A stretch of 64,000 nucleotides of DNA from Manis javanica (taxonomy: Eukaryota; Chordata; Mammalia; Pholidota; Manidae). Under the pieces are notes generated by a model. It was not told the origin of the DNA. It searched no databases and saw nothing but the letters and a program-made list of their open reading frames with translations. Below, one piece after another: positions 20,970-28,995 of the stretch. Location: positions 46,259,034-46,323,033 of the forward strand of contig NC_133169.1 of NCBI RefSeq assembly GCF_040802235.1, in the 5' to 3' direction. A program made the translations under genes and the position numbers. How positions within the stretch are numbered: position 1 is the first letter of the stretch; the number at the start of each line of letters is the position of its first letter.

Positions 20970-21303
20970 TGTCGCGTGCCCTGTCCTCGCCGGCAAGAAC
21001 AGCACGCAACAACAGCAGGATTCTTCTGCAGAAAGCTTTATTCTTCAGCTCTTTGTGAAACAAATGAGTTGGGCAGGACCCAGAGGGGAAGGAGAGGCTT
21101 GCTTATATAGTTCTCATGCTCTGACCTGGTTGGTGCGGCTCCATATGCCTTATTAGCATAACCATTTGGTGGGTCTCATTGGTCCTTATGCCAAGGCGCA
21201 ATTAGCATGTAGTTTAGTGGTGTGGGATGATTTGTCATTAGGAAGTTCGGGGCCTTCCGGCTGCCCTGCATTGGGCGCTATTTTCTGAGCGCGGCTGCCA
21301 ACA
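20970..21303 (-). repeat. 3' LTR of the provirus (334 bp)
   Basis: Begins (minus strand) TGTTGGCAGCCGCGC and ends GGGCACGCGACA. The TATA-like TATATA is at 21,104-21,109 and the AATAAA poly(A) signal is the complement of 21,037-21,042, about 65 bases downstream of the TATA. That gives a short R region. Identical to the 5' LTR except at three positions. Confidence 0.95.
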
Positions 21304-21318
21304 TCTCCCCCTTTTTTG
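21304..21318 (-). promoter_or_regulatory. Polypurine tract (plus-strand primer site)
   Basis: Read on the minus strand, AAAAAAGGGGGAGA lies directly before the 3' LTR start. Position and composition are those of a retroviral PPT, the RNase H-resistant primer for plus-strand DNA synthesis. Confidence 0.9.
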
Positions 21319-21649
21319 TCTAACAGAAGCTCAAGGCGGAACTTGCCAGCAGAGGTGGAGACAGAGGCCTGACCTCCATCATACTTCCTGATGCCCCCTT
21401 TTTGGAGAGGGGTTCTGGGCATCTACCCCTATGCAGTCAGGCATGCCTCTCAGAGGGGTCCAAGACCTCTTGCAGTGCTTTGCCTCGCATCCTCTGGCTG
21501 GCGTTGGGACCGCTTGGTACAAAGGGTTTGGACCCTTTTTCTCAACCCTCTTGCACCATGAGCTTCTTAAAGAAAGCTGTGATTAAGCATTGAGGTACTC
21601 GGGCCTGGTGCAGTGCCACATGGGCTCAGGGTGCAAGAGCTACCTCAAG
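21319..21649 (-). other. Provirus region between env and the PPT
   Basis: About 330 bases of 3' untranslated proviral sequence. The short open stretches here (for example 21,186-21,422) cross into the LTR and have no recognisable accessory-gene features. Confidence 0.6.
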
Positions 21650-23425
21650 CTAAAGCCGAGCTTCCTTCTTAAGCATGTTGAGCCACACTTGGGGAGAGGC
21701 GCCAACGTCTATCGCCATTAGGGCTTGAGCAAGGATCACCTTGTCCTGCTTATGTTGGTTGCGGAGTCTGCATAACAACCAGAGTAAGAGCATGAGACCT
21801 CCAAGCAGGAACACGCCCATCCCAGCCATGCCCGCCCACTCCTTGACGTGGGAGAGAGCTCTGAGGAACCAGGAAGAGAGTCCTTCCGCTACGGAGATAT
21901 CTAGACGGGTGGAGTTGATGTGGATAATTTCTCGCCCCAGCTCTTCTAGTGTCCCATCGAAGTCTTGGGACCAGTTTCCTGAAAGATACTGGGACAGGTC
22001 TTGTGACAGATTAGCTGCCCGTGTAAAATTTTTATATTGAATGCTAGCGATGCAGAGGGCACGATATTTCCGCTCACATCCCAATTGGGCCATTTGCCAG
22101 AGCACCTCTATTTGTTCCTCCACGAGATCTATGCGTTGATTGAGGATCATTATTCCTCCTTTCAGTTTGCCATCAAGTGTGGACTGTTGGTCCAGGGCAG
22201 AAGCTACTGAGGCTGCAAGGTTATTGAGCTCTGTAGCCGATTTGATGGAGGTGTCTAAAGCTATACCAGCGGCGGTGGCTGCGACCGCGGTCGCGGAGAT
22301 CAGGAGCACTATGGCGGCTGTAACACCGAAATCGCGCCTTTCTCGAAACAGAGTCATGGTGTTAGGGGCGTCTACGGGAACAGGGACCCAACGGGGGATG
22401 CGGACTACCAAAGCATTGGTAAAGTTACGCGCATCCCAACACTGAGACAGAAAGCAGGTTTCATTGGAGCAGGAGTCAAAGCTACTATTGGATAAGATAA
22501 ACAGAAATGGGGGGTATACGCATACTGGAGAAGGTGGAAAAAGGGAATTAGGTGACTCTGGACCTGATTTTGCTGAACACGTGTAGTTCTCGTTGTTATG
22601 GGTCATGATCATGTTCCAGTGTGCGCGCATGTGGTTATTCTTGCACCAAAAGGTGATATTTTTTACACCGATTCCCCCACCCTGGAGGGCGGAAAAGGGG
22701 GAGAGGTCGGTACACGAGCCATTGACTCCACACAGCATCCATTTATGGAAGGGGTTCATGCTCAGCTGCTGACGAAACTCGCCTTCGAGCACCTTTACTG
22801 GCCACCAAGCCTCATTGGCTGGCCGTCCCTCCATATCTGGGGAGATGGTAAACTCCTGCCTCTCAGTTGCCCACGTTACTACAGTTGACTGACAGTCAGT
22901 CCAGGGCCACAGCTCTCCCTCATAGTCGCCCACACAATGGGAGGCATATTTGGGTTGACGAGGCCTGTCGGTGGAATTGTTCCTGGGAGAGTGTACAAAT
23001 GTGCCATTGATCCAGAGAACCATCTGGTGGATAGTCATGTTCTTATAGGGCGGGCTCCCTTCCTTATTAGGCCCTTCAAATTTAGCTGACATAACGGGGA
23101 GGCTACTGGCCTCTAGAATTATGTCACTGAACCATCCGTATTTCCTCCGTTTCAGGGAGATACAGCCAGCTAGATTCTGAGTGGTGAAGCATAATGACCC
23201 ATTAGTTACGAAGGATCGGTTTTCTCCCAGGGGAGCTACTAGGGTGTCTTTAACTAAGTAGGGCAAGTTCATACTAGCATTGGTAGTGAAAAAGCGCGGA
23301 AAAACGGCTGCATTGAAACGGACAGGCATAGGCTTAGGAAAGGCAGACAGGATTCCCCATCTCAATACTCCCTGAGTCGGGGTCTCCAGTGTCAGGAGCA
23401 GGGTCAGGAGGTATAGCGAAGTCAT
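21650..23425 (-). CDS. env: Envelope glycoprotein (Env), open, 591 aa
   Basis: An uninterrupted 591-codon frame that overlaps the end of pol by about 90 bases, as usual for a spliced env. Visible parts: a hydrophobic signal peptide (residues 1-19); a surface subunit with many N-x-S/T sites and paired cysteines; a furin-type RERR at 361-364; an Ala/Ile-rich fusion peptide directly after (about 368-392); a heptad-rich region (about 395-445); a cysteine pair C450-C458 with seven residues between; a membrane anchor at about 534-553; and a cytoplasmic tail of about 38 residues. No CX6CC motif is seen, which fits non-covalent SU-TM association as in betaretroviruses. Receptor and fusogenicity are unknown. 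IAP-like elements often lack env, so an open env here is notable. No frame damage is visible. Confidence 0.92.
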   Translation of the reverse strand: MTSLYLLTLLLTLETPTQGVLRWGILSAFPKPMPVRFNAAVFPRFFTTNASMNLPYLVKDTLVAPLGENRSFVTNGSLCFTTQNLAGCISLKRRKYGWFSDIILEASSLPVMSAKFEGPNKEGSPPYKNMTIHQMVLWINGTFVHSPRNNSTDRPRQPKYASHCVGDYEGELWPWTDCQSTVVTWATERQEFTISPDMEGRPANEAWWPVKVLEGEFRQQLSMNPFHKWMLCGVNGSCTDLSPFSALQGGGIGVKNITFWCKNNHMRAHWNMIMTHNNENYTCSAKSGPESPNSLFPPSPVCVYPPFLFILSNSSFDSCSNETCFLSQCWDARNFTNALVVRIPRWVPVPVDAPNTMTLFRERRDFGVTAAIVLLISATAVAATAAGIALDTSIKSATELNNLAASVASALDQQSTLDGKLKGGIMILNQRIDLVEEQIEVLWQMAQLGCERKYRALCIASIQYKNFTRAANLSQDLSQYLSGNWSQDFDGTLEELGREIIHINSTRLDISVAEGLSSWFLRALSHVKEWAGMAGMGVFLLGGLMLLLWLLCRLRNQHKQDKVILAQALMAIDVGASPQVWLNMLKKEARL

Positions 23426-28491: not shown

Positions 28492-28641
28492 GGTGCCTCC
28501 TTATTTACAGAGAACCATCAACCATCATCCTAAAAAGCAGGGGCCTCTCGGAACTTACCCCTCTGGGCTTTCTTCTGACCTGCAGTTCTGAATCCTCTCC
28601 AGATGTCTGAAGGGTCCTCCCTGTGCCGGTGATGTTCTGGT
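28492..28641 (-). other. Provirus leader between PBS and gag
   Basis: About 150 bases of untranslated leader. It should hold the packaging signal and the splice donor for env mRNA, but I cannot place either with confidence. Confidence 0.6.
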
Positions 28642-28659
28642 TCCCGGGTTTCGGCACCA
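28642..28659 (-). promoter_or_regulatory. Primer binding site, tRNA-Phe
   Basis: Two bases after the 5' LTR, the minus strand reads TGGTGCCGAAACCCGGGA. It is complementary to the CCA end of mammalian tRNA-Phe at all 18 bases. IAP elements use tRNA-Phe, while HERV-K and MMTV use tRNA-Lys, so this supports the IAP-like placement. Confidence 0.9.
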
Positions 28660-28661
28660 CT

Positions 28662-28995
28662 TGTCGCGTGCCCTGTCCTCGCCGGCAAGAACAGCATGCA
28701 ACAACAGCAGGAATCTTCTGCAGAAAGCTTTATTCTTCAGCTCTTTGTGAAACAAATGAGTTGGGCAGGACCCAGAGGGGAAGGAGAGGCTTGCTTATAT
28801 AGTTCTCATGCTCTGACCTGGTTGGTGCGGCTCCATATGCCTTATTAGCATAACCATTTGGTGGGTCTCATTGGTCCTTATGCCAAGGCGCAATTAGCAT
28901 GTAGTTTAGTGGTGTGGGATGATTTGTCATTAGGAAGTTCGGGGCCTTCTGGCTGCCCTGCATTGGGCGCTATTTTCTGAGCGCGGCTGCCAACA
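28662..28995 (-). repeat. 5' LTR of the provirus (334 bp) with promoter
   Basis: Same 334-bp length as the 3' LTR. On the minus strand it holds a CCAAT-type element (GACCAATGAGA), a TATATAAG box (complement of about 28,794-28,801) and AATAAA (complement of 28,729-28,734). These give a complete U3-R-U5 that should direct transcription of the provirus on the minus strand. Confidence 0.95.

What the first reader, a model, noticed from the sequence alone, without database searches (positions are those of the whole stretch)
20970..28995. Young, apparently undamaged IAP-like provirus with an open env
Gag, pro, pol and env frames are all open, and every catalytic or structural motif I looked for is present. 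The two LTRs differ at only 3 of 334 positions and the 6-bp duplication is perfect. Most mammalian class II ERVs of this type are truncated or env-deficient. A recent, coding-complete, env-bearing copy suggests the family was infectious or mobile recently and may still be polymorphic or expressed in this host.
Basis: partly seen in the sequence, partly recalled or inferred. Interest (0 to 1): 0.9.

Follow-up and report, generated by a model that had tools for sequence, protein, structure and literature searches.

The report
Young intact pangolin IAPE-type endogenous retrovirus
A pangolin chromosome carries a young, apparently undamaged copy of a retrovirus related to the rodent "IAP" elements, envelope gene included; this is a new member of a known kind, and its fast-changing envelope surface protein suggests that the family spread as infectious virus in pangolins.

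Summary
On the minus strand at 20970-28995 lies a complete class II provirus: two 334-bp LTRs (3 differences), a 6-bp target duplication, a PBS read as tRNA-Phe, a polypurine tract, open gag, pro, pol and env, and in-frame slippery sites at the gag-pro and pro-pol overlaps.

The host is a pangolin, most likely Manis javanica (env 98% identical to a M. javanica protein whose cluster has 72 member sequences). Gag and pol fall among IAP-type, rodent-rich sequences. Env is beta-type; its SU model matches HERV-K and MMTV SU. The nearest kind is the env-bearing IAP ("IAPE").

A probable sister lineage in the Chinese pangolin is in print (2025, "ERV-Alpha-Mpen"), so the kind is not new. Not seen in the papers searched: the IAP-type placement of this lineage, and a median SU:TM divergence ratio of 3.5 (10 pairs), against 1.7 in 55 pairs of related Envs. 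That fits spread by infection, or SU swapping, better than intracellular retrotransposition.

Copy number, empty sites, expression and infectivity of this locus were not tested; the host-genome search did not complete.

The parts
28662..28995 (-). 5' LTR, 334 bp (TG...CA), with TATA-like box and AATAAA signal
   Evidence: box and poly(A) signal read by eye
28996..29001 (.). 6-bp target-site duplication, copy beside the 5' LTR
28642..28659 (-). 18-nt primer-binding site read as tRNA-Phe (assignment recalled), starting two bases after the 5' LTR
   Evidence: sequence
26737..28491 (-). gag, 585 aa from its first ATG: p10 matrix, PPPY, p24 capsid with MHR, two CCHC knuckles; MGNAPS start
26875..26881 (-). 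gag-pro slippery site A AAA AAC in the gag frame
   Evidence: the 80 nt downstream fold no better than shuffles (z 0.08)
25964..26911 (-). pro open frame: dUTPase, aspartic protease (DTG), G-patch
25967..25973 (-). pro-pol slippery site G GGT TTT in the pro frame
25887..25966 (-). stable RNA stem directly after the pro-pol slippery site
   Evidence: -41.9 kcal/mol, z -4.67, 0 of 200 shuffles as stable
23337..25985 (-). pol open frame: RT, thumb, RNase H, integrase
21653..23425 (-). env, 591 aa from its first ATG: SU, RERR cleavage site, TM with C-X7-C; beta-type
21304..21317 (-). polypurine tract directly before the 3' LTR
20970..21303 (-). 3' LTR, 334 bp
20964..20969 (.). 6-bp target-site duplication, copy beside the 3' LTR

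Best explanation
This is a recent germline copy of an IAPE-type (env-bearing intracisternal-A-particle-related) class II retrovirus of pangolins. Shown from sequence: a complete provirus with matched LTRs and target duplication; gag, pro, pol and env open; two in-frame slippery sites, the second followed by an unusually stable stem; and a Gag start of the myristoylation type. Inferred: the LTR promoter drives a tRNA-Phe-primed genome; two -1 frameshifts make Gag-Pro and Gag-Pro-Pol; myristoylated Gag assembles at the plasma membrane; a beta-type Env (SU/TM cut at RERR) allows cell entry; and the family grew in pangolins at least partly by reinfection of the germ line, with SU diversifying strongly. 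Its gag and pol lie among IAP-type, rodent-rich sequences, which suggests a cross-order virus lineage, possibly from rodents.
Against: No genome-wide copy count, empty site, transcript or particle was seen. Most rows of the pol tree are unnamed, so their hosts are unknown. The pangolin rows plus the two R. norvegicus Gags form a clade in the quick 118-row tree (94) but not in the careful 40-row tree, where that clade is 2.3 log units worse and not rejected (p-AU 0.35). The SU:TM comparison uses non-independent pairs chosen by hand, and the comparison Envs may include decayed copies, which would pull their ratio towards 1. The myristoylation-type Gag start is common (17 of 21 Gags looked at, hamster IAP included), so it does not show an extracellular life. 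At the LTR point divergence, four intact neutral frames have only a 0.4-3.3% probability, so either the copy is younger than 2 My or the LTR differences mislead. A paper found RT relatives of 80% or more identity to the Chinese-pangolin families only in the Malayan pangolin among 159 mammal genomes, so no very recent rodent source is evident.
Confidence: 0.8

Rival explanations
1. The copy came from intracellular retrotransposition (IAP-like), and its open env is only a passenger not yet decayed.
For: IAPs in mouse spread this way after losing env and moving assembly to the ER (PMC3236903; passages of PMC4643047). A single young copy cannot tell the two modes apart, and the Gag start does not separate them.
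Against: Env of the pangolin clade keeps TM conserved while SU varies, and a cluster of 72 open Env sequences exists in M. javanica.
Confidence: 0.2
2. SU variability comes from repeated recombination that swapped SU segments between pangolin IAPE lineages, not from point-by-point selection. (Compatible with the main reading.)
For: P0005 and P0006 differ by 44% in SU but 7% in TM, with windows up to 100% identical in the second half of TM. SU and TM trees are not fully alike.
Against: Divergence is concentrated in a few windows within SU with conserved stretches between them, as variable loops would give; no recombination test was run and no donor was found.
Confidence: 0.35
3. The open frames or the LTR identity are assembly or polishing artefacts.
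For: Repeated ERV copies are prone to collapse in assemblies (general knowledge).
Against: 98-99% identical open gag, pol and env proteins are present in other records (sources ncbi, lgn and ena).
Confidence: 0.04
4. It is an alpharetrovirus-like element, as the published Chinese-pangolin relative was provisionally named.
For: [quoted passage not shown]
Against: The named closest pol relatives include IAPs and no alpharetrovirus. Gag matches HERV-K capsid far better than the entry named Rous sarcoma virus capsid (E 4e-24 against 1e-4). Env is beta-type, without CX6CC.
Confidence: 0.04

Closest known systems
ERV-Alpha-Mpen of Manis pentadactyla (PMC12584738)
   Same: Class II, PBS-Phe (as the paper's wording implies), dUTPase, G-patch, gag-pol-env, up to 13 copies dated 1.41-3.47 Mya, LTRs near a M. 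javanica Dfam family. The two closest of six M. pentadactyla-named Gag hits are 93 and 94% identical over the capsid-nucleocapsid columns; the other four are 75-85% over part of Gag.
   Different: That the two are one lineage is inferred, not tested by accession. The paper says that ERV-Alpha-Mpen lacks the Cys-His box and PPPY that its other lineages have, which this element has. M. pentadactyla-named Envs are only 57-70% identical in SU. The paper calls it alpharetrovirus-like; here pol and gag fall with IAP-type sequences. It reports one orthologous insertion of that family in both pangolins.
Mouse IAPE (IAP with envelope)
   Same: IAP-related gag-pol with an env of beta type (PMC3758190, passages); a functional mouse copy buds from cells and is infectious (PMC3236903, whole text).
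   Different: Different host order; Env here is 40-51% identical to the rodent-named Envs listed. Receptor use (ephrin-A in mouse) is unknown here. No row could be labelled as the mouse IAPE record itself.
Mouse and hamster IAP (env-less)
   Same: Pol 63-64% identical (P0066 IAP-named, P0083 Chinese hamster IAP); PBS-Phe (recalled).
   Different: IAPs lost env and moved assembly to the ER; here env is open.
HERV-K (HML-2) and MMTV
   Same: SU fold and beta-type TM; dUTPase in pro (for the closest solved dUTPases; their virus names recalled).
   Different: SU only 11-14% identical; PBS-Lys (recalled); HML-2 Env has a long signal peptide (recalled), here it looks like about 20 aa by eye.

Membership tests
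IAP / IAPE group | pol clusters with rodent IAP | tested here: met
   in a 26-row clade (100/98) with IAP-named, Chinese hamster IAP and Mus rows; outgroup a single rabbit row, most rows unnamed
IAP / IAPE group | gag clusters with IAP-type Gag | tested here: met
   hamster IAP H18 Gag lies on the same 54-row side (97) of the tree, but in another subclade
IAP / IAPE group | tRNA-Phe primer-binding site | tested here: met
   the assignment to tRNA-Phe is recalled
IAPE (env-bearing) | open env of beta type, homologous to rodent IAP-type Env | tested here: met
   which rodent hits are IAPE proper was not established
IAPE (env-bearing) | Gag targeted to the plasma membrane | tested here: inconclusive
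   MGNAPS start fits a myristoylation signal; a start of this kind is in 17 of 21 Gags looked at, hamster IAP included, so it does not separate IAPE from IAP
IAPE (env-bearing) | infectious particles | not tested
   step referred
IAP (env-less retrotransposon) | env lost | tested here: not met
   594-aa open env
Alpharetrovirus | avian gamma-type Env and alpharetroviral gag-pol | tested here: not met
   beta-type Env; Gag and pol nearer HERV-K/IAP; no rooted tree with alpharetroviruses was built
Type-D betaretrovirus | gamma-type Env with CX6CC | tested here: not met
   the only C-X6/7-C match is C-X7-C, not followed by C

The most novel reading that the evidence does not exclude
Pangolins host, or hosted within the last million years or so, an infectious IAPE-type retrovirus lineage acquired across orders from a rodent-associated pool, still entering the germ line, with several SU variants maintained by receptor or antibody pressure: a living or very recent counterpart of the ancestor of IAP elements outside rodents.
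Probability: 0.2. Interest if true: 0.75.

Novelty: new member of a known kind. Interest (0 to 1): 0.45.

Why it matters
IAP elements are a textbook case of a retrovirus that turned into an intracellular parasite; in mouse, a single fully functional copy of the env-bearing progenitor was identified (PMC3236903). A young, coding-complete, env-bearing relative in a non-rodent, with an SU that diverges much faster than TM, gives a system in which the infectious stage and the spread between mammal orders may be studied and dated. It also suggests that the published 'alpharetrovirus' of the Chinese pangolin may be better read as IAP-type. For a critically endangered host that has lost several immunity genes (PMC10776870, abstract start in the listing), an active germline retrovirus would matter for health and conservation genetics.

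Tried and rejected
Alpharetrovirus, type-D and env-less IAP readings were considered and rejected (see membership test). Rfam found nothing in the window at gathering thresholds, and ARAGORN no tRNA. Scans of viral contigs with pol, the Env alignment and Gag found no relative. No structured export element stood out between env and the 3' LTR (147 nt folded, z -0.30) or in the leader (146 nt, z -0.48), and the gag-pro site had no unusual simple stem (z 0.08; pseudoknots not modelled). The Env model is poor overall (mean pLDDT 55.5); only the SU core is usable, and the TM region gave no meaningful fold match. Ribet 2008 (PMC2279247) is not held; it is known here only through papers that cite it.

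Rows dropped before counts: the Env, pol and Gag searches scored capped candidate lists (about 8000 each) and listed 31 of 31, 120 of 542 and 120 of 295 hits. Gag tree used 40 rows, the most identical to the query, of 118 (two long rows, P0159 and P0242, taken out first; 118 of 121 had 200 or more residues in the region). Pol tree kept 63 of 121 rows (thinned at 90%). The pol tree used 31 rows and the first 560 columns, left out the Trypanosoma-labelled row P0122 as a probable contaminant and thinned at 88%, so the own-host row P0034 is not in it. SU tree 26 of 32 rows, TM tree 29 of 32; in the TM tree P0016 (M. pentadactyla) is a very long branch, its TM being only 41% identical, probably a broken gene model. 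The SU:TM comparison used 5 pangolin-clade and 11 other Envs picked by hand out of 32 (full or nearly full length, near-duplicates and partial rows left out). A first count of stop-creating changes read pro in the wrong frame and was replaced; the LTR ages are.

Full report
What is there. The window holds, on the minus strand at 20970-28995, a complete class II provirus. The LTRs are 334 bp each (28662-28995 and 20970-21303), start TG and end CA, differ at 3 positions and are flanked by the same six bases. Two bases after the 5' LTR comes an 18-nt stretch that I read as a tRNA-Phe primer-binding site (recalled), and a purine run stands directly before the 3' LTR. Frames from stop to stop: gag 588, pro 316, pol 883, env 594 aa, with no internal stop in the parts counted. 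Pfam names the expected domains, including dUTPase and a G-patch in pro; the GP41 match of Env is just above its cut-off.

Expression signals. Gag, pro and pol are in three frames. A AAA AAC (26875-26881) lies in the gag frame and G GGT TTT (25967-25973) in the pro frame. The 80 nt after the second site fold into a very stable stem (-41.9 kcal/mol, z -4.67, 0 of 200 shuffles); the 80 nt after the first do not stand out (z 0.08). That both sites work is inferred.

Host. Protein searches give a M. javanica Env at 98% identity whose cluster has 72 member sequences (some may be duplicate records), and unnamed Gag and Pol at 99%. M. pentadactyla-named proteins follow in the Env and Gag lists. The host is therefore a pangolin, most likely Manis javanica; another close Manis species is not excluded. 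The assembly holding the window could not be searched: seven identical requests did not complete.

Kind. Of the 120 listed pol hits (of 542) seven carry a name: an IAP Pol (P0066, 63%), Chinese hamster IAP (P0083, 64%), Nannospalax, two Mus spicilegus, rabbit, and a Trypanosoma-labelled record. In a careful tree of 31 rows the query sits in a 26-row clade (100/98) that holds the IAP-named, hamster and one Mus row, with Nannospalax and the rabbit outgroup outside; its nearest rows are unnamed and that fork is weak (84/81). In the capsid-nucleocapsid tree of 40 rows the six pangolin-like rows are one clade (100/100) within a 12-row clade (97/95) that also holds Rattus norvegicus, R. rattus and Meriones rows; the nearest host-named non-pangolin Gags are rat, 76% over 295 columns. 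In the quick tree of 118 rows the pangolin rows and the two R. norvegicus rows stand together (94); in the careful tree they do not, and holding them together is neither better nor rejected (p-AU 0.35). I read this as a cross-order lineage with rodent ties. Direction is inferred: rodents dominate the named rows, and many rows are unnamed.

SU against TM. Against the six longer pangolin-clade Envs that are not from M. javanica (P0005-P0010), SU is 51-67% identical and TM 75-88%. In four of these compared window by window (40 residues, gaps counted as mismatches), identity falls to 2-15% at the lowest in SU, while TM windows stay at 70% or more for P0005, P0006 and P0009 and at 62% or more for P0010. 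Over 10 pairs the Kimura distance ratio SU:TM has a median of 3.52 (2.14-9.32); over 55 pairs of 11 other Envs it is 1.67 (0.89-2.48). Pairs are not independent, rows were picked by hand, and decayed copies among the others would pull their ratio towards 1. Still, TM in the pangolin clade was kept while SU changed, as expected if Env was in use while these lineages separated. SU swapping by recombination explains the extreme pair (P0005-P0006, 9.3) as well.

Age. Three differences in 334 bp give 2.0 My at 2.2e-9 per site per year (rate recalled), with a Poisson range of 0.4-6.0 My; two of the three sit in CpG and so may have arisen faster. With 7083 coding bases and a 3.6% share of changes that create stops, four intact frames have a probability of 0.4-3.3% at the point divergence under neutrality, and 33-49% at the low end of the range (indel ratios assumed). 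This suggests an age of about 1 My or less; selection on the copy need not be assumed. The published split of the two pangolins is about 16.4 Mya, so an insertion private to M. javanica is expected, not shown.

Literature. PMC12584738 (parts 1-3 of 5, and passages) describes ERV-Alpha-Mpen in the Chinese pangolin: up to 13 copies, PBS-Phe by its wording, dUTPase and G-patch, 1.41-3.47 Mya, placed with alpharetroviruses by RT and between alpha and beta otherwise. It is probably the sister lineage, but the paper says that it lacks the Cys-His box and PPPY which this element has, reports one orthologous insertion in both pangolins, and found close RT relatives only in the Malayan pangolin among 159 genomes. 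The word 'intracisternal' does not occur in its main text. PMC10776870 (passages) reports IAP-like ERV genes as the largest group among differentially expressed ERV genes in Malayan pangolin skin, so IAP-like sequences in this host are in print. PMC3236903 (whole text) and PMC2531183 (passages) describe the infectious mouse IAPE. PMC3758190 (passages) and PMC4643047 (passages) describe IAPs across mammals and cross-order spread; PMC11334065 (passages) and PMC4637884 (passages) give context. Searches for pangolin with endogenous retrovirus, intracisternal A, IAP or betaretrovirus listed no paper whose title or abstract start describes this pangolin IAPE lineage; the library lacks most subscription journals.

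Verdict. The element is a young, apparently intact, IAPE-type provirus of a pangolin: a new member of a known kind, one of a set of open-env sequences in this host, with an SU:TM pattern worth following.

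Noticed in passing
window 48472-53822 (-) and 58545-63672 (+): Two LINE-1 copies in inverted orientation, 85-86% alike over about 4.4 and 0.7 kb; the minus-strand one keeps a 963-aa frame with endonuclease and RT, a 353-aa downstream frame and a 328-aa ORF1.
   Followed up: partly
window 45507-46229 (+): Olfactory-receptor frame lacking the first about 60 profile positions; an upstream receptor-like piece (by eye) lies in another frame (45284-45595), so probably a pseudogene.
   Followed up: partly
window 8232-8715: GC-rich tandem array with overlapping periods of 44, 60, 87, 104 and 131 bp.
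   Followed up: partly
window 32134-32768, 35360-36492 and 55932-57081: Dispersed repeat of 0.6-1.2 kb, 68-80% alike between copies; two frames tested there (36251-36673, 56847-57248) match no Pfam family at E 0.001.
   Followed up: partly
window 1996-2838 (+): 281-aa frame with a sub-threshold match to SPATA46 (24.3 bits, cut-off 29.5) over its C-terminal part.
   Followed up: no
relatives: P0122: A record labelled Trypanosoma congolense carries an IAP pol that groups with Mus spicilegus: probably mouse contamination of that assembly.
   Followed up: no
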